A DNA stretch of 64,000 bases from Macromonas bipunctata (lineage in GTDB: Bacteria > Pseudomonadota > Gammaproteobacteria > Burkholderiales > Burkholderiaceae_C). Below the pieces are notes generated by a model. That model made no database searches and had not been told where the DNA came from. It saw nothing but the letters and a program-made list of their open reading frames with translations. The translations under genes were made by a program, and so were the position numbers. Shown here in pieces: positions 8,731 through 40,439 of this stretch. Location of the stretch: the NCBI RefSeq assembly GCF_002837135.1, contig NZ_NWBQ01000016.1, forward strand, positions 16,567-80,566. The letters run 5' to 3'. The stretch's first letter is position 1. Each line of letters starts with the position of its first letter.

Positions 8731-9564
8731 ATGTTGAAGCAACGCGTGATCACCGCCGTCGGTTTGCTGGCGGTGTTTGTGCCCGCTCTGTTTTACCCCG
8801 ATCCGGCGCCTTTTGGCGTGTTGACCTTGTGCCTGATGGCGGCCTCGGGCTGGGAGTGGGCGCGCCTCAATGGCTGCAGCACGCCCGTCGCACTGGCCTG
8901 GGGCGGGGCGTTGGGCGCTGCGCTGGCGGTCGCCTGGGGCTGGTGGGGTCTGTCGGTGCCAGTGCCGCAGGTGTGGCAGCTGGCTGCGGTGGTCTGGGTG
9001 ATGGTGACGGCGCGGCTGCTGCGCCGTGGCGTGCCTGGTTGGCCTTCGGTGCCGCGCGGGGTGCGCCTGGGGGGGGGGCTTCTGTCGATTGGCCTGGCCT
9101 GGTGGGCGATGGCGCAGGCGATGGCACAGGGCGTGCTGCTGCTGCTGTCGATGCTGTGCCTGGTCTGGATGGCCGACAGCGCGGCCTACTTTGGCGGCAA
9201 GGCTTTCGGGCGCCGCAAGTTGGCCCCGACTATCAGCCCGGGCAAGAGCTGGGCCGGGGTCTACAGCGGCATGGCGGGGGTGCTGCTGCTGGGTGGCGCG
9301 TGGGCGTGGGCCGAGGCGCGCTGGGGCGTGCCGGGGGCGAGTTTGTTTGGCCGCCTGTGGGCGCAAGGCCCGTGGGTGTTTGTGGCCGGCTTGCTGGGCC
9401 TGACCGCCATGGGCGTTGCGGGGGACTTGCTGGAATCGCTGGTCAAGCGCAGCGCAGGCGTCAAGGATTCGAGCGCCCTGTTGCCAGGGCATGGCGGCGT
9501 TTTGGACCGGGTGGACGCCCTGTTGCCGGTGTTGCCGCTGGCCATGTGGCTCATCACACCCTGA
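8731..9564 (+). CDS. cdsA: Phosphatidate cytidylyltransferase
   Basis: This 277-residue polytopic membrane protein makes CDP-diacylglycerol from CTP and phosphatidate. The C-terminal CDS signature is complete: [46 protein letters not shown], and [17 protein letters not shown]. Several hydrophobic segments fill the first 180 residues. The ATG at 8731 begins MLKQRVITA, typical of the family. It is followed by dxr with a 17-base gap. Confidence 0.96.
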
Positions 9565-9581
9565 ACACGGAATTGGAATTG

Positions 9582-10796
9582 ATGGTAAACATGAACGCTG
9601 TGGCCACTGCCACGCCCACGGTGCAGACCCTGACCGTGCTGGGGGCCACGGGCTCGATAGGCCAGAACACGCTGGACGTGGTGGCGCGCCACCCCGGGCG
9701 TTTTGCGGTGTTCGCGCTGACCGCCGCCACCCAGGTCGAGTTGCTGCAGCAGCAGTGCCTGCGCTTTGCGCCGCGTTACGCGGTGATGGCCGACCCCACC
9801 GCCGCCACCGCGCTGCGCGCTGCGCTCCAGCAGCACGGCAGCCGCACCGAGGTCCTCAGCGGTGCGCAGGCGGTGTGCGACGTGGCCGCTGCGCCCGAGG
9901 TGGACACCGTGATGGCGGCCATCGTGGGCGCGGCCGGCCTGCCGCCGTGCGTGGCGGCCGCGCGTGCGGGCAAGAAGCTGCTGCTGGCCAACAAGGAAGC
10001 CCTGGTGGTGGGCGGCGACTGGTTCATGGCGGCGGTGCGTGCCGGTGGCGCCACGCTGCTGCCCATCGACAGCGAGCACTCAGCGGTGTTCCAGTCGTTG
10101 CCGGAAGACCCGGCCACGTGGCAGCGTCGCGTTGAGAAAATCGTGCTGACCGCCTCCGGCGGGCCATTCCGCCAGCGCAACCCTGCCACGCTGGCCAGCG
10201 TTACGCCCGAGGAGGCCTGCGCGCACCCCAACTGGGTCATGGGGCGCAAGATCTCGGTCGATTCCGCCACCATGATGAACAAGGCGCTGGAGGTGATTGA
10301 GGCGCGCTATCTGTTTGGTCTGGCGCCAGCGCAGATTGAGGTGGTGATCCATCCGCAAAGCGTGATCCATTCCATGGTGCAGTACCGCGACCGCTCGGTG
10401 GTGGCACAGTTGGGCACGCCCGACATGCGGGTGCCGATCGCCTACGGCCTGAGCTGGCCGGAGCGCATGGAGTCTGGCGCGCAGGGGCTGGACTTTGCGA
10501 CTCTGGGCGCGCTGACGTTCGAGGTGGCCGACCGCGCACGCTTTCCGGGCCTGTTCCTGGCGTGGGACGCGCTGAACGCCACGCCCGGCACCACGGCGGT
10601 GCTCAACGCCGCCAACGAGGTGGCGGTGGCCGCGTTCCTGGAGCGCCGCCTGCGCTTTGACCAGATCCCGCACGTGAACCAGGCCACGCTGGCGGCCTTT
10701 GTTCCGCCGGTGCCGCAGCAATTGGACGACTTGCTGGCCATCGATGCCGAAGCCCGCGCCGTGGCGCAGCAGCACGTGGCGCGCTGTGCGGCCTGA
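9582..10796 (+). CDS. dxr: 1-deoxy-D-xylulose 5-phosphate reductoisomerase
   Basis: This 404-residue NADPH-dependent enzyme carries out the second step of the MEP isoprenoid pathway. The Rossmann motif [15 protein letters not shown] lies near the N-terminus. [15 protein letters not shown], the substrate loop [11 protein letters not shown] and SASGGPFR-type segment (here [12 protein letters not shown]), and [18 protein letters not shown] are all present. The start may be ATG 9582 or ATG 9591; the frame is open upstream through cdsA. It supplies the precursor used by UppS upstream. Confidence 0.97.
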
Positions 10797-34707: not shown

Positions 34708-36534
34708 ATGGCACTGATTGATATCAAAGTCCCCGACATTGGCGACTTTTCTGAAGTGGCGGTGATTGAGCTGCTGGTCAAACCCGGCGACAGCATCAAG
34801 GCCGAACAAAGCCTGATCACCGTGGAATCCGACAAAGCTTCGATGGAAATCCCGTCGTCGCACGCCGGTGTGGTGAAGGAACTCAAGGTCGCGCTGGGCG
34901 ACAAGGTCAGCGAAGGCACGGTGGTGCTGATGCTGGAAGCCGACGGTGCTGGCGCTGCTGCCCCCGCCGCCGCTCCCGCACCGGCCCCGGCAGCGGCGGC
35001 ACCCGCTGCAGCCCCTGCAGCGCCGGTGGTGGCCCCGACCGCCGCCAGCTTCGGCGGCAACGCCGATGTGGAATGCGACCTGCTGGTGCTGGGCGCTGGC
35101 CCGGGCGGCTACTCCGCCGCTTTCCGCGCCGCCGACCTCGGCCTGAAAGTGGTGATTGTGGAACGTTATGCCACCCTGGGCGGCGTGTGCCTGAACGTGG
35201 GTTGCATCCCGTCGAAGGCGCTGTTGCACGTGGCCGCCGTGATGGACGAAGTCAGCCACATGGCCGATTTGGGCGTGGATTTTGGCGCTCCCAGCGTCAA
35301 CATCGACAAGCTGCGCGGCCACAAGGAAAAGGTCATCACCAAGCTGACCGGTGGTTTGGCCGCTATGGCCAAGATGCGCAAAGTCACCATCGTACGCGGC
35401 CTGGGCCAGTTTGTGGGGGCCAACCACGTCGAGGTGGAAGAAACCACCGGCACCGGCCAAGACACAACCGGCAGCAAGAAAGTGGTGGCGTTCAAGCGTT
35501 GCATCATCGCGGCGGGTTCGCAAGCCGTGCGCCTGCCCTTCATGCCGAACGACCCGCGCGTGGTGGACTCCACCGGCGCGCTGGCGCTGCAAAGCGTGCC
35601 CAAGAAGATGCTGATTGTGGGTGGCGGCATCATCGGTCTGGAAATGGGCACCGTGTACAGCACGCTGGGCGCACGCCTGGACGTGGTCGAGATGATGGAC
35701 GGCCTGATGCAGGGCGCAGACCGCGATTTGGTCAAGGTGTGGCAGAAGATGAACGCCAAGCGCTTCGACAATATCATGTTGAAGACCAAGACCGTGGGTG
35801 CCGAGGCCACGCCCGAAGGCATCAAGGTGCAGTTCGAGGGGCTGGACGGCACCAAGAGCGAAGGCGTGTACGACCTGGTGCTTCAAGCCGTGGGCCGCAC
35901 GCCCAACGGCAAGAAAATCGCCGCCGACAAAGCGGGTGTGGCCGTGACCGACCGAGGCTTCATCAACGTCGATATCCAGATGCGCACCAACGTGCCGCAC
36001 ATCTTCGCCATTGGCGACATCGTGGGCCAGCCCATGCTGGCGCACAAGGCGGTGCACGAGGCCCATGTGGCGGCAGAAGTCATCGCCGGTGAGCTGCAGG
36101 GCAACAAGGAACTGGCTTCGGCCGCCTTCAACGCCCGTGTGATTCCGAGCGTGGCTTACACCGACCCCGAAGTGGCGTGGGTCGGCCTGACCGAAGACCA
36201 AGCCAAGGCGCAGGGCATCAAGGTCAAGAAGGGCCTGTTCCCGTGGACGGCTTCGGGCCGCGCCATTGCCAATGGCCGTGACGAAGGATTCACCAAGCTG
36301 TTGTTCGACGACAGTCCCGAAGCACATGGCCACGGCAAGATCCTGGGCGGCGGCATGGTGGGCACCCACGCGGGCGACATGATCGGCGAGATCGCGCTGG
36401 CCATTGAAATGGGCGCCGACGCGGTGGACATCGGCAAAACCATCCACCCGCACCCCACGCTGGGCGAAAGCATCGGCATGGCAGCGGAAGTGGCGCACGG
36501 CTCCTGCACCGACTTGCCGCCGGCGAAGAAGTAA
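34708..36534 (+). CDS. lpdA: Dihydrolipoyl dehydrogenase with N-terminal lipoyl domain (PDH E3)
   Basis: This 608-residue flavoprotein reoxidises dihydrolipoamide on E2. A lipoyl domain (residues 1-75, [12 protein letters not shown]) and an Ala/Pro linker precede the disulfide oxidoreductase; this extra domain is common in betaproteobacterial PDH E3. The redox pair sits in [16 protein letters not shown], the NAD-binding loop in [12 protein letters not shown], and the dimer-interface His-Glu in [11 protein letters not shown]. Its last 561 bases are repeated at 39879-40439 on the far side of a restriction-modification cassette. Confidence 0.97.
35974..36534 (+). repeat. Long direct repeat, copy 1 (3' end of intact lpdA)
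   Basis: This is the upstream member of a 561-bp direct repeat; the partner is 39879-40439. By eye about 38 positions differ (about 93% identity), without indels. Homology begins at ATCCAGATG and stops just past the lpdA stop codon. Confidence 0.95.
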
Positions 36535-36718: not shown

Positions 36719-38782
36719 ATGGCAACAAAACTCAGAACCGGTCCAGACATGGATATCGACGTGGTGCTGAAGTACCTCGCCATTGCCAGGCAGCACCACA
36801 CCCAAGCCGAGATCGCCAAGTACCTCGAAGTCGACGTCAAGACCATCCGTCGCTGGGAGGCAGGCGAAAGCCAGCCCAAACCCTACACCGCCCACGCACT
36901 GCGTCAGCTCATTCTGCCGTTCGGTGCGCCCGATATCGGAAATGCCGCATTCAGATTCATCGATTTGTTCGCTGGCATTGGCGGCATCCGCGCCGCTTTC
37001 GAGGGCATTGGTGGCCAGTGCGTGTTCACCAGCGAGTGGGACAGCTACGCGCAGAAAACCTACGCCGAGAACTTCCACGACGGCCACCTGATCGCCGGTG
37101 ACATCACCAAGGTCGAAGCTAGGGACGTGCCGGATCATGACGTGTTGCTGGCAGGCTTCCCCTGTCAGCCCTTCTCGATTGCAGGAGTGAGCAAGAAAAA
37201 CGCGCTAGGCCGCGCTCATGGCTTCCACGACGAAACGCAGGGGACCCTGTTCTTCGATGTTTGCCGCATCATCGAAGCCAAACGTCCGCGCGCCTTCCTG
37301 CTGGAGAACGTCAAGAACCTCATGTCGCATGACAAGGGTCGCACTTTCGATGTGATCCGCCGCGCGCTGACCGACAACCTCGGCTACCAGATTCACTACC
37401 GCATCATCGACGGTGCCCACTTCACCCCCCAGCACCGCGAGCGGATCATCATTGTCGGCTTCCGCGACGAAGCCGCCGCAAGCGCCTTCAAGTTCGATGC
37501 CGTTCCGCTGCAGCCCAAGGGCAAGGTGGTGATGCGCCACATCTTGCACAAGACCGATGGTTCCGAGCCCCGTATCGAAGCCGACGGCGACAAGTATTTC
37601 AACCATGATCTAGCCTGTGTGCCGGCCAAATACACCCTGACCGACAAGCTCTGGGCTTATTTGCAGAGTTACGCCGCCAAACACAAGGCTGCAGGCAACG
37701 GCTTTGGTTTCGGGCTGGTGTATCCGGACAGCGTTTCGCGCACCCTCTCGGCCCGCTACTACAAGGACGGCTCCGAGATTCTGGTGTGGCAGGGCGAAGG
37801 GCAAAATCCGCGCCGCCTGACGCCGCGTGAGTGCGCGAGGCTGATGGGTTTTCCGGATACTTACCGGATTCCGGTGTCGGATACCAAGGCCTATGAGCAA
37901 TTTTCGCAAGCCGCTGTCATGCCTATGATCGAAGCAGTCGCTAAACTGATGGCTCCGCATCTGACCGCGAAGGAGATGGCGCCGACGCTGCGCGTCGAGG
38001 AGCCGAGGATCATGGCGACATCGAAGAACTGGACGAGGGAACAGCTCAAGCTGGCGTTTCACCTGTATTGCCAACTGCCGTTCGGCAAGTTGCACAAGGG
38101 CAATCAGGAGATCATTCATCTCGCCAAGCTGATTGGTCGCACGCCTTCAGCTGTCGCCATGAAGCTCGTCAATTTCGCCAGTCTCGATCCGGCGATTACC
38201 TCGACAGGACGCAAGGGTTTGGATGGCGCGTCCAATCTGGATCGGGAAGTCTGGGCCGAGTTTCATGCCGACTGGGAAGGGCTAGCCGTCGAGTCCGAAA
38301 TGCTCCGGCGCAGCTTTGATCATGTGCCCGCCGTCGATGAATCTGACGAGCTGCTTATACCGGAAGATTTCACCGGCGAGACGCGCAAGGTCGTCACGGA
38401 GCAGCGCATCAAGCAAAACTTCTTCCGCCGCGCGGTACTCAGTGGTTACGGCGGACGCTGCTGCATGTCCGGCGTTTCCGAACTGCGTCTGCTCATCGCC
38501 AGCCATATCGTTCCGTGGAGCAAAGACAAGCAGAATCGCCTGAATCCAAGCAACGGCCTGTGCTTGTCGGCGATCCACGACCGCGCTTTCGACAAAGGTC
38601 TGATCTCGGTATCTGACGATTTCAGGATCTTGGTTTCTCGTCCGCTACGGCTCAGCAAAGATGATTTCTTACAGCGCAGCCTGTGTGCGTTAGAGGGAAC
38701 AGAGATTGCCTTGCCCGAGCGCTTTCAGCCTGAGCCTGCATTTCTTGCTCAGCATCGCGCTGATATTTTTCTCGGCGATTGA
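36719..38782 (+). CDS. HTH-C5 cytosine DNA methyltransferase fused to HNH endonuclease
   Basis: This 687-residue single frame appears to encode both halves of a restriction-modification system. Residues 10-60 look like an XRE-type HTH (TQAEIAKYLEVDVKTIRRWE), as in Dcm/SsoII-like enzymes that regulate their own expression. Methyltransferase motifs follow: I FIDLFAGIGG (about 79), IV GFPCQPFS with the catalytic Cys near 149, VI ENVKNL, and VIII QHRERIIIVG. Motif X is unusual, with QFSQAAVMP in place of the common QFGNSV. From residue 432 (MATSKNWTREQ) the protein matches the start of stand-alone HNH nucleases, ending in an HNH_2-like domain (ASHIVPW near 594, NPSNGLCLSAIHD near 612). ATG 38012 at the junction has GAGGAG nine bases upstream, so a separate nuclease may also be made. 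Base composition is less GC-rich than the neighbours, suggesting transfer. Specificity is unknown. Confidence 0.85.
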   Translation: MATKLRTGPDMDIDVVLKYLAIARQHHTQAEIAKYLEVDVKTIRRWEAGESQPKPYTAHALRQLILPFGAPDIGNAAFRFIDLFAGIGGIRAAFEGIGGQCVFTSEWDSYAQKTYAENFHDGHLIAGDITKVEARDVPDHDVLLAGFPCQPFSIAGVSKKNALGRAHGFHDETQGTLFFDVCRIIEAKRPRAFLLENVKNLMSHDKGRTFDVIRRALTDNLGYQIHYRIIDGAHFTPQHRERIIIVGFRDEAAASAFKFDAVPLQPKGKVVMRHILHKTDGSEPRIEADGDKYFNHDLACVPAKYTLTDKLWAYLQSYAAKHKAAGNGFGFGLVYPDSVSRTLSARYYKDGSEILVWQGEGQNPRRLTPRECARLMGFPDTYRIPVSDTKAYEQFSQAAVMPMIEAVAKLMAPHLTAKEMAPTLRVEEPRIMATSKNWTREQLKLAFHLYCQLPFGKLHKGNQEIIHLAKLIGRTPSAVAMKLVNFASLDPAITSTGRKGLDGASNLDREVWAEFHADWEGLAVESEMLRRSFDHVPAVDESDELLIPEDFTGETRKVVTEQRIKQNFFRRAVLSGYGGRCCMSGVSELRLLIASHIVPWSKDKQNRLNPSNGLCLSAIHDRAFDKGLISVSDDFRILVSRPLRLSKDDFLQRSLCALEGTEIALPERFQPEPAFLAQHRADIFLGD

Positions 38783-39276
38783 GCACCATGCAACAGCCCG
38801 TCGATTACAGCTTCGCCTTGAACCAGATTGCACGCGCTCAAGCCAGCATTCTGCTGGCTCAGACCGATGATTTGAGTGCTTGCCTGACTGAGTTCATCAA
38901 GCGTGGACTTAAAGAAATTCCGCCGGATTACCTGATGGCGTCGCACGAAGAGCATCAATTGCTTGCACGCCACACGCACGATGAAAGCCCCCGGCACCCC
39001 GGCATGTACCTCAAGTTGCTTCACGGACGACGCAGTACACACGAAGACATGAACGACTGGGGGCCTGATGGGCCGTGGATTGGGCCGCTTAAATGGTTTC
39101 ATTGCACTTACCTGTCCACGATTGGGATTGGTTTTGAAGATGGCAGTGAAATCGCGCCGATGATGCCGGGCGGCGACTTGCCTTCTCCGATGTTTATTTC
39201 TGAAGGCTTGCTGTACTTCAACGGCATGTATTACGGGGATTGGGAGCTTCAAAAGCAAGGTGGTTTTGGCGTTTGA
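38779..39276 (+). CDS. Unrecognised 165-residue protein in the restriction-modification island
   Basis: The frame starts GTG or at ATG 38788 (MQQPVDYSFALNQIARAQA), overlapping the end of the methyltransferase-nuclease gene by four bases. It has no signal peptide or membrane segment. A first helical part is followed by HPGMYLKLLHGRRSTHEDMN, DWGPDGPWIGPLKWFH and a C-terminal LLYFNGMYYGDWEL. Such DWG-DGP-GP proteins occur as hypotheticals in mobile elements as far as I recall, but I cannot assign a function. Overlap with the nuclease gene suggests co-transcription. The same frame remains open after its TGA into the next remnant. Confidence 0.6.
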   Translation: MSTMQQPVDYSFALNQIARAQASILLAQTDDLSACLTEFIKRGLKEIPPDYLMASHEEHQLLARHTHDESPRHPGMYLKLLHGRRSTHEDMNDWGPDGPWIGPLKWFHCTYLSTIGIGFEDGSEIAPMMPGGDLPSPMFISEGLLYFNGMYYGDWELQKQGGFGV

Positions 39277-39339: not shown

Positions 39340-39864
39340 ATGTACTGCGAACAAGGGGTAAAAGCGTTCGTTACAAAATTCGGCTCTCCCACTGGAAACG
39401 ATACGTTGTACTTCACCGGCACCCACCGCGCAGGTATGCGCAACGAAAAAACTGGGTTGAGCCTCGTCGTGCGCGGCTTCAACCTATCCCGAAAACTCAT
39501 CGAGGATGTGAACGGGGCGGTGGAGCTTCAAACCGACGATGGCGACTGTGCAGCCGGGTGGTCGTTTGCCGACTTGATGATTGGCTGGAACAGGAAGCAC
39601 GCACAAGCGGCGTACGTCTCGTATGAAAGCGAAAAATTGCTCGCGCCGGTCTACCGCTACTTCAGCCCGGCGCTCCTCGGAGAAGGCACGGACTTCAATC
39701 GCTATCTGAACGCGCTGGCAAGCGGCATCATCATCTTTGATCCCGGATCTAAGGTCATGAACGCCACTACCGATAAATCCACCGTCAAGGCACGCAGTCA
39801 GTTCAGGACTTCCACGCAGCACCTCGCGGCCTTGTACGAAAAATTCGGACCGGAGGCGTTTTGA
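39340..39864 (+). pseudogene. N-terminally truncated restriction endonuclease-like protein (MvaI/BcnI-like)
   Basis: The 174-residue frame begins MYCEQGVKAFVTKFGSP and has no Shine-Dalgarno sequence of note. LYFTGTHRAGMRN, the GWSFADLMIGWNRKHAQAAY block, YRYFSPALL and the end KARSQFRTSTQHLAALY follow the order seen in the C-terminal two thirds of MvaI/BcnI-type nucleases (WSF-L, Y-Y, and a late charged segment before F-R). The usual N-terminal DFxGIEIK-type part is absent. It is in the same frame as the preceding gene, separated only by that gene's TGA and 63 bases, which suggests a deletion joined the two. The family assignment is tentative and rests on remembered motif order. Confidence 0.45.
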
Positions 39865-39878
39865 TCATGCTGCGCGCG

Positions 39879-40439
39879 ATCCAGATGCGCACCAACGTGC
39901 CGCACATCTTCGCCATCGGCGACATCGTGGGCCAGCCCATGTTGGCGCACAAGGCGGTGCACGAGGCACACGTGGCGGCAGAAGTGATTGCCGGCGAACT
40001 GCAAGGCAACAAGGAACTGGCTTCGGCGGCGTTCGACGCCCGTGTGATTCCGAGCGTCGCTTACACCGATCCCGAAGTGGCGTGGGTTGGCCTGACCGAA
40101 GACCATCCCAAGGCGCAGGGCATCAAGGTCAAGAAGGGCTTGTTCCCGTGGACGGCCTCGGGTTGCGCCATTGCCAATGGCCGCGACGAAGGCTTCACCA
40201 AGCTGCTGTTCGACGACAGCCCCGAAGCACACGGCCACGGCAAGATCCTGGGCGGTGGCATGGTGGGCACCCACGCGGGCGACATGATCGGCGAGATCGC
40301 ACTGGCCATTGAAATGGGTGCCGACGCGGTGGACATTGGCAAGACGATTCACCCGCACCCCACGCTGGGCGAAAGCATCGGCATGGCAGCGGAAGTGGCG
40401 CACGGCTCCTGCACCGACTTGCCCCCGAGCAAAAAGTAA
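39879..40439 (+). pseudogene. lpdA 3' fragment (direct repeat copy 2)
   Basis: This stretch encodes the last 186 residues of dihydrolipoyl dehydrogenase without the FAD site, redox disulfide or lipoyl domain, so it cannot be an enzyme. It is collinear with 35974-36534 with no indels. About 38 bases differ, but only five residues do: N to D, QA to HP, R to C, A to S. Mostly silent change means the copy diverged while part of a working gene, probably in another lineage. It forms the right border of the restriction-modification island. Confidence 0.92.

What the first reader, a model, noticed from the sequence alone, without database searches (positions are those of the whole stretch)
36719..38782. 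Single-gene restriction-modification unit: HTH + C5 methyltransferase + HNH endonuclease
One uninterrupted 687-codon frame carries an XRE-like HTH, C5-methyltransferase motifs I, IV, VI and VIII and, from residue 432, what looks like a complete HNH nuclease that usually exists as its own gene. The join occurs exactly where a free-standing nuclease would begin, at an ATG (38012) with a GAGGAG Shine-Dalgarno nine bases ahead. The locus may therefore make both a bifunctional fusion and a separate nuclease. Motif X (QFSQAAVMP) departs from the usual QFGNSV. Fusion of HTH control, methylation and cleavage raises the question of how premature cleavage is avoided.
Basis: partly seen in the sequence, partly recalled or inferred. 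Interest (0 to 1): 0.75.

Follow-up and report, generated by a model that had tools for sequence, protein, structure and literature searches.

The report
Nuclease-fused cytosine methyltransferase, altered motif X
One gene joins a DNA-marking enzyme to a DNA-cutting enzyme; relatives carry the same join together with the same kind of change near the marking enzyme's cofactor pocket, and the cutting half often survives without the marking half, which is not how ordinary restriction systems behave.

Summary
The 687-codon fusion is real: HTH, Dcm-like C5 methyltransferase, linker, complete HNH protein. Twenty further full-length in-frame fusions, 63-72% identical, were aligned.

(2) The nuclease outlives the methyltransferase: of 108 HNH loci 70 are solitary and 12 keep methyltransferase wreckage; the HNH frame is open in 107. 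Twenty such genomes showed no full-length Dcm-like methyltransferase. That argues against a restriction enzyme whose only antidote is its methyltransferase. (3) Fused genes avoid CCWGG (12 against 130 expected; flanking genes 0.64 of expectation), strongest of 48 palindromic patterns.

An MvaI/BcnI gene downstream is truncated and a small partner ORF follows. Most likely a CCWGG-directed, Type IIC-like fusion built from a mobile McrA-type HNH module. No activity has been tested.

The parts
36719..38782 (+). Fused ORF, 687 aa: HTH - C5 methyltransferase - linker - HNH protein
   Evidence: 20 further full-length fusions in alignment A3
36788..36898 (+). HTH_3 domain, residues 24-60
   Evidence: Pfam PF01381, 1.1e-5
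36950..37945 (+). C5 cytosine methyltransferase domain, residues 78-409; motifs I, IV, VI, VIII intact
   Evidence: Pfam PF00145 1.5e-79; TIGR00675 above cut-off; motif table
37901..37918 (+). Altered motif X, residues 395-400 FSQAAV in place of FGN[SC]V
   Evidence: Gly-Asn absent in 23 of 23 HNH-linked and present in 25 of 25 unlinked methyltransferases (rows)
37997..38014 (+). GAGGAG and ATG at the junction: possible internal start for a free HNH protein
   Evidence: sequence; start codon kept in 23 of 24 fusions, SD strength not conserved
38012..38281 (+). N-terminal helical domain of the HNH protein (its residues 1-90), weakly homeodomain/Myb-like
   Evidence: AF2 model pLDDT 85.6; best matches Z about 5, weak
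38375..38779 (+). HNH nuclease domain (HNH-protein residues 122-256)
   Evidence: VcaM4I Z 12.0, 32% id; TagI Z 11.4; HNH_2; His/Asn columns conserved
38788..39276 (+). Partner ORF directly downstream (about 162 aa, no Pfam or PADLOC match); one of several small ORFs found in this slot
   Evidence: 62 of 107 HNH loci have S1, S2 or this ORF in the slot; homologues behind HNH in L145 and L153; no family match
39340..39864 (+). N-terminally truncated MvaI/BcnI restriction endonuclease gene (profile 77-227 of 227 only)
   Evidence: PF15515 1.5e-18; the 442-aa relative in L038 matches 1-227
39879..40439 (+). Second, truncated copy of the lpdA 3' end behind the island (intact lpdA is 34708-36534)
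   Evidence: 523 of 561 bases identical to 35974-36534

Best explanation
A mobile module made of motif X, a C-terminal helix, an HNH nuclease and a small partner gene has been recombined onto CCWGG-type, HTH-bearing C5 methyltransferases, in the place of a now truncated MvaI/BcnI restriction enzyme. The result is a single-chain, Type IIC-like system. The HTH probably regulates the gene, as in M.SsoII (inferred). The methyltransferase half finds CCWGG through its recognition domain and marks self DNA (inferred). The tethered HNH cuts when the site is unmarked (inferred). By itself the HNH does not attack the unmodified chromosome (indicated by its survival without the methyltransferase); CCWGG targeting would come from the tether, and the downstream partner protein may restrain or license it (inferred). 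Shown here: the fusion and its conservation, the motif X/HNH association, the switch before motif X in one chimera, wrecked or absent methyltransferases beside open HNH genes, CCWGG avoidance, the truncated MvaI gene, and the partner slot. Inferred: specificity, methylation, cleavage, role of the partner.
For: Fusion conserved: 20 further full-length fusions. Both halves under purifying selection: methyltransferase dN/dS 0.04-0.14 in nine fused pairs, HNH 0.035-0.118 in the 16 of 18 pairs with finite dS. Core residues of motifs I, IV, VI and VIII present in all fused rows. CCWGG is the most avoided of 48 palindromic patterns in 24 fused genes relative to neighbours: 12 of 129.8 expected (0.10) against 408 of 637 (0.64) in 127 flanking genes; unlinked methyltransferases 0.48 with flank 0.70. 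The fused HNH part alone has 0 of 29.6 expected. In the 11 of 80 loci where the full-length MvaI query matched, its residues 1-220 were not detected. Twenty genomes with HNH but no fused methyltransferase showed no full-length Dcm-like methyltransferase. Chimera: L121 is 85-98% like its best unlinked relatives per window up to residue 394, then 38% against 59% to a linked one.
Against: Solitary HNH genes are under purifying selection, so the HNH has a use that needs neither the tether nor CCWGG marking. HNH-only genes also avoid CCWGG (0.35 against 0.65 in flanks). CCWGG is not depleted in the host window (249 against 207 expected), so the resident system has not shaped this genome. GGWCC is also low in fused genes (0.17, flank 0.37). 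Deamination is not favoured but not excluded as a cause of CCWGG loss. The altered motif X could mean weak or different modification, and fused methyltransferases look slightly less constrained than unlinked ones (0.02-0.08 in five finite of seven pairs). The model of the whole fusion is poor (pLDDT 63, pTM 0.42), so no domain contact can be read.
Confidence: 0.42

Rival explanations
1. The HNH is an independent, modification-dependent (Type IV-like) nuclease that attacks foreign modified DNA. The fused methyltransferase is a companion whose own product it ignores, or whose methylation is weak because of the altered motif X.
For: Nearest solved folds of the nuclease domain are the modification-dependent enzymes VcaM4I (Z 12.0) and TagI (Z 11.4), with EcoKMcrA at Z 4.0 (by sequence 6yex, 5e-11). 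HNH stands without a methyltransferase in 70 of 108 loci and beside wreckage in 12. No full-length Dcm-like methyltransferase in 20 such genomes.
Against: No recognised modification-sensing domain: the N-terminal part resembles a homeodomain/Myb bundle only weakly (Z about 5). If it cut methylated CCWGG, fusion to an active CCWGG methyltransferase would be suicidal, yet the catalytic motifs are intact. The strong CCWGG avoidance of fused genes is not predicted.
Confidence: 0.3
2. A selfish nuclease module. The HNH cassette invades methyltransferase genes near the conserved stretch before motif X, carries its own replacement C-terminus so that the methyltransferase stays functional, and spreads by recombination rather than by defending the host.
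For: Switch point just before motif X in L121. Linked methyltransferase backbones rejected as one clade (p 8e-5). Fused status needs 18 changes on the HNH tree, at least 10 forced by supported branches.
Against: Most HNH copies compared sit without a methyltransferase in varied neighbourhoods, so no fixed homing site is seen. A linked partner ORF and strong purifying selection suggest a host-level function.
Confidence: 0.1
3. A conventional Type II pair that happens to be fused: the HNH is an orthodox CCWGG restriction enzyme needing its methyltransferase as antidote.
For: Gene order, HTH-methyltransferase anatomy and CCWGG avoidance.
Against: Open, selected HNH genes without methyltransferase, 12 of them beside methyltransferase wreckage. 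The reverse decay, an unlinked methyltransferase with the HNH-type motif X, was not seen among 25.
Confidence: 0.1

Closest known systems
Type IIC / IIG restriction enzymes (BtgZI, MmeI, BpuSI)
   Same: Modification and cleavage domains in one chain (PMC4081073, passages read).
   Different: Per those passages mostly PD-(D/E)XK nuclease with a gamma-class methylation domain, BtgZI with an alpha-class one; here a C5 methyltransferase is followed by an HNH, and the nuclease also lives alone.
M.SsoII / M.Ecl18kI-type HTH-C5 methyltransferases (M.EcoRII recalled as a relative)
   Same: N-terminal regulatory region before a C5 methyltransferase domain (M.SsoII residues 1-71 regulate transcription: PMC3978073, start of abstract in the listing).
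   Different: No nuclease fused there (recalled); sequences of these named enzymes were not compared here.
MvaI/BcnI-type system with Vsr (locus L038)
   Same: Methyltransferase 68% identical to the window's; MvaI remnants occur next to HNH.
   Different: There the REase gene is complete (profile 1-227) and a Vsr is present, motif X is FGNSV; here MvaI is truncated and an HNH is fused.
Modification-dependent HNH endonucleases VcaM4I, TagI, EcoKMcrA
   Same: Nuclease domain fold (Z 12.0, 11.4, 4.0).
   Different: VcaM4I has an EVE and TagI an SRA domain (PMC12707154, passage); no such domain was matched here, and in fusions a methyltransferase precedes the HNH.
Motif X variants: CmoX, M.MpeI N374K, M.HhaI N304A
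   Same: Changes at or near the motif X Asn alter which cofactor is accepted (PMC12783734 and PMC10666283, passages; that M.MpeI N374 is the same position is recalled).
   Different: CmoX uses Arg, the engineered forms Lys or Ala; here Gln, Asp or Glu (once Asn, once Gly) with the preceding Gly also lost, and the change is tied to a nuclease.

Membership tests
C5 cytosine DNA methyltransferase | Profile match and motifs I, IV, VI, VIII | tested here: met
   PF00145 1.5e-79; motifs in all fused rows
C5 cytosine DNA methyltransferase | Motif X with Gly-Asn | tested here: not met
   FSQAAV in the window; Gly-Asn absent in 23 of 23 HNH-linked rows (Gly lost in 23, Asn in 22; L169 keeps Asn). An M.HhaI Q82A/N304A enzyme is described as only modestly reduced in methylation (passage), so this does not exclude the family
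Type IIC restriction-modification (both activities in one chain) | Methyltransferase and nuclease domains in one uninterrupted, conserved ORF | tested here: met
Type IIC restriction-modification (both activities in one chain) | Both activities demonstrated on one recognition sequence | not testable with these tools
   CCWGG is inferred from relatives and site avoidance only
Orthodox Type II restriction enzyme with protective methyltransferase | Nuclease not tolerated without its methyltransferase | tested here: not met
   70 solitary and 12 remnant loci, HNH frame open in 107 of 108; no full-length Dcm-like methyltransferase in 20 genomes. Three of those genomes have divergent C5 enzymes (33-38%), and other protection cannot be excluded
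Type IV modification-dependent HNH endonuclease | McrA-type HNH nuclease fold | tested here: met
   VcaM4I Z 12.0, TagI Z 11.4
Type IV modification-dependent HNH endonuclease | Modification-sensing domain (SRA, EVE, wH) | tested here: inconclusive
   Only HNH_2 in Pfam; weak homeodomain/Myb-like matches
MvaI/BcnI restriction-modification system | Complete MvaI/BcnI endonuclease | tested here: not met
   Profile 77-227 of 227 only in the window
Dcm subfamily (NCBIfam NF007772) | Score above curated cut-off | tested here: not met
   409 bits against a cut-off of 710; the wider TIGR00675 is passed

The most novel reading that the evidence does not exclude
HNH-linked methyltransferases form a natural group of C5 enzymes stripped of the motif X Gly-Asn gate. 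The fused arm may therefore not do ordinary methylation: it could place a bulkier group from a non-standard AdoMet-type cofactor at CCWGG, or only read and flip the base, while the McrA-type HNH judges the resulting mark. That would be a one-chain self-recognition system built from a modification-dependent nuclease plus a re-gated methyltransferase, with an exchangeable small partner gene as its safety catch.
Probability: 0.12. Interest if true: 0.9.

Novelty: new variant of a known kind. Interest (0 to 1): 0.64.

Why it matters
The passages I read on combined restriction enzymes describe PD-(D/E)XK nucleases with alpha- or gamma-class methylation domains; a C5 methyltransferase with a McrA-type HNH is a different design. 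The strict association of the HNH with loss of the motif X Gly-Asn is a natural counterpart of laboratory mutations that change cofactor choice, so the mark these enzymes make is worth measuring. A nuclease that persists where its methyltransferase is wrecked or gone reverses the usual toxin-antitoxin logic, and what keeps it harmless becomes directly testable.

Tried and rejected
Internal start: conserved start codon (23 of 24) but no conserved Shine-Dalgarno (junction mean -2.48, internal Met -2.53, p=0.68; solitary HNH starts -4.10), so I do not claim dual products for the family.

Deamination as the cause of CCWGG loss: in the phase that had a transversion control, transition products are not more enriched than it (nCT_WGG 1.54 and nC[AG]_WGG 1.49 in the methyltransferase part, 0.18 and 1.60 in the HNH part). 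In the other phase the possible transition products C_CWA_G and C_TTG_G stand above the flanks (0.71 and 0.69, 0.92 and 1.27, against 0.41 and 0.41) and I ran no transversion control there. So deamination is not favoured, not excluded.

Sequencing frameshift as the cause of the fusion: rejected by 20 relatives. Single clade of linked methyltransferase backbones: rejected (AU p 8e-5), but only 4 independent pairs lie on supported branches (7 on all), all in the same direction, too few for p<0.05; motif X and HNH lie close together, so hitch-hiking is possible. L121 is the one clear chimera of the seven rows examined. Foreign origin of one lpdA copy: undecided; in the 13 loci L182-L194 the upstream copy is 82-89% and the downstream copy 81-88% identical, upstream nearer in all 13. 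Co-occurrence of HNH with unlinked Dcm-like methyltransferases: too few to test. Full-fusion structure too poor to use. Plasmids and phages: no record with one place covering 80% of the query (the plasmid search hit its 5000-record limit). Viral contigs: five partial HNH relatives, 36-47%. Literature: no paper on a C5 methyltransferase-HNH fusion was in the listings of searches (none; five; two) of the held open library; this is not proof of absence.

Limits and dropped rows. In some searches at most two candidates per genome were scored. One search tested 20 of the 23 genomes with HNH and no fusion (G129, G114, G382 left out). Duplicates of one record (L097, L098, L100, L101, L103, L119, L140, L160) were left out of counts from then on, L089 only from then on. 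L166 (frameshift) and L083 (motif X not covered) were left out; unlinked rows were limited to 48% identity or more. In some searches the HNH-only set of 85 still held two contig-end fusions (L037, L136), the remnant loci and the duplicate L089; the fused set of 24 held L144 (stop in linker) and L166. In one search the 24 fused include the contig-end L037 and L136, and L084 counts as solitary although it has a methyltransferase-like tail. An early note said 27 unlinked rows; the recount is 26, of which 25 cover motif X.

Full report
WHAT IS THERE. The window holds one open frame, 36719-38782 (+), of 687 codons. Pfam finds HTH_3 at 24-60, DNA_methylase at 78-409 (1.5e-79) and HNH_2 at 581-631. 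NCBIfam gives the C5 superfamily model above its cut-off and the Dcm subfamily model below it (409 of 710 bits). A PADLOC HNH model covers 424-685. The junction ATG at 38012 and its GAGGAG are as reported. Downstream are a partner ORF (38788-39276), the C-terminal part of an MvaI/BcnI endonuclease gene (39340-39864, profile 77-227 of 227) and a second copy of the lpdA 3' end (39879-40439, 523 of 561 bases identical to 35974-36534).

THE FUSION IS CONSERVED. Among 399 genomes of the order, the window's genome, three others with full-length fusions and one contig-end partial carry it. In 399 genomes of the family only the window's own was found to. In both searches at most two candidates per genome were scored. 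A scan of species genomes with an HNH alignment kept the best 80 of 584 relatives. Twenty of these are full in-frame fusions, among them Parachitinimonas caeni, Dechloromonas denitrificans, Thiobacillus denitrificans and several Gallionella (record titles). They are 63-72% identical to the window.

MOTIF X GOES WITH THE NUCLEASE. In 23 of 23 non-redundant HNH-linked methyltransferases (22 fused, one split by a stop) the motif X Gly-Asn is replaced: SQ 12, AD 6, SE 2, AE, SN and AG one each. So Gly is lost in 23 and Asn in 22. In 25 of 25 unlinked relatives of 48% identity or more it is GN. The cores of motifs I, IV, VI and VIII are intact in the fused rows. On a tree without the motif X columns, holding the linked methyltransferases together is rejected (p-AU 8e-5); four independent pairs on supported branches all go the same way, too few for significance. 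L121 is 85-98% identical, window by window, to its best unlinked relatives up to residue 394 and then falls to 38%, against 59% to a linked one; in DNA it falls from about 64-86% to 37-39% there. The likeliest reading is that motif X, helix, linker and HNH are exchanged as one block; only one clear chimera was found. Passages of two papers bear on this: Q82 and N304 of M.HhaI lie in motifs IV and X shared by all C5 methyltransferases, and N304A was essential for bulky cofactors (PMC10666283); M.MpeI N374K and the phage enzyme CmoX accept carboxy-AdoMet (PMC12783734). That M.MpeI N374 is the same motif X position is recalled. A Q82A/N304A enzyme is described as only modestly reduced in methylation, so the change does not prove loss of methylation.

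THE NUCLEASE OUTLIVES THE METHYLTRANSFERASE. Of 108 HNH loci, 24 are fused (two at contig ends), 2 are adjacent or frameshifted, 12 have methyltransferase remnants upstream and 70 are solitary by script; the HNH frame is open over the matched stretch in 107. Fused status needs 18 changes on the HNH tree and supported branches force at least 10; gains and losses are not told apart, but the remnants show losses. HNH dN/dS is 0.035-0.118 in the 16 of 18 pairs where dS was finite, solitary pairs included. In 20 genomes with HNH but no fusion, no full-length Dcm-like methyltransferase was found at E 1e-10: G002 holds a 174-residue piece at 64%, G191, G251 and G311 hold fragments, and G002, G097 and G281 hold C5 enzymes of 33-38%. 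In an orthodox Type II system, loss of the genes exposes sites to the remaining restriction enzyme (PMC3874152, passages). So the HNH is probably not simply that.

CCWGG. The window has 249 CCWGG (207 +/- 15 expected) but only one between 36719 and 39864, where the window's rate predicts 12.2. Against synonymous-codon shuffles, 24 fused genes hold 12 of 129.8 expected, while 127 flanking genes hold 408 of 637. The ratio of ratios, 0.15, is the lowest of 48 palindromic patterns; GGWCC is next at 0.47. HNH-only genes give 0.54, also the lowest of their set, and unlinked methyltransferases 0.69, third lowest. The fused HNH part has 0 of 29.6. Deamination is not favoured but not excluded. I read this as long exposure to restriction at CCWGG, by this system or by others of the same specificity.

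MvaI, PARTNER ORFS AND NUCLEASE FOLD. A classical relative has methyltransferase, Vsr and a complete MvaI/BcnI enzyme (L038). In the 11 of 80 HNH loci that matched the full-length MvaI query, residues 1-220 were not detected (in L171 the fragment is on the other strand). Behind the HNH lies S1, S2 or the window-type ORF in 62 of 107 loci, and in 25 of the 26 fused, adjacent or frameshifted ones, L157 being the exception. In 399 genomes, 13 of 15 S1/S2 hits lie beside an HNH (compared); around the other two no HNH was seen. They match no Pfam or PADLOC model, and their role is unknown. The HNH model (pLDDT 85.6) matches VcaM4I and TagI best.

VERDICT. The most likely working is a CCWGG-directed single-chain system in which the methyltransferase half supplies targeting and marking and a McrA-type HNH, harmless by itself, supplies cleavage. 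The main rival is an independent modification-dependent nuclease with a methyltransferase companion. None of the activities has been shown.

Noticed in passing
window 35974-36534 and 39879-40439: A 561-bp duplication of the lpdA 3' end (93% identical) brackets the island, each copy with its own following sequence: long target duplication or donor-borne flank.
   Followed up: partly
L034:9052-9423; L035:9076-9438 and 9439-9816; window 38788-39276; L104, L143, L129, L056, L167: The slot behind the HNH holds one of several dissimilar small ORFs (S1, S2, window type, and by eye a Cys-rich type of about 60-80 aa), like exchangeable partner or immunity genes.
   Followed up: partly
L144 and L129, linker: A stop codon in the linker ahead of the HNH ATG separates the two halves; L144 keeps a methyltransferase matching residues 12-421 next to an open HNH, L129 only a remnant.
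   Followed up: partly
L035 and L112 (HNH): Nearly the same HNH (dN 0.024, dS 0.57) is fused in L035 (Dechloromonas denitrificans, same place as L100) and solitary in a Rhodocyclaceae MAG: a good natural pair for experiments.
   Followed up: no
L002 (G000:C33:57012-57284) and L003 (G000:C13:24074-24631): The window's genome has another HNH relative (46%, 244-aa frame) and a diverged C5 methyltransferase relative (32%) elsewhere.
   Followed up: no
fused genes, 24 loci: GGWCC is also rare in fused genes (13 of 78 expected; flanks 0.37), only partly a habit of the neighbourhood.
   Followed up: no
L067:3819-6174: A diverged HNH relative (58%) is followed by an ORF that looks like Vsr by eye, with a diverged C5 methyltransferase relative (35%) on the opposite strand.
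   Followed up: no
L149, 221-aa ORF behind the HNH: The truncated MvaI frame of L149 still contains GWEMK, by eye like a catalytic ExK, so in some loci part of the MvaI active site may survive.
   Followed up: no
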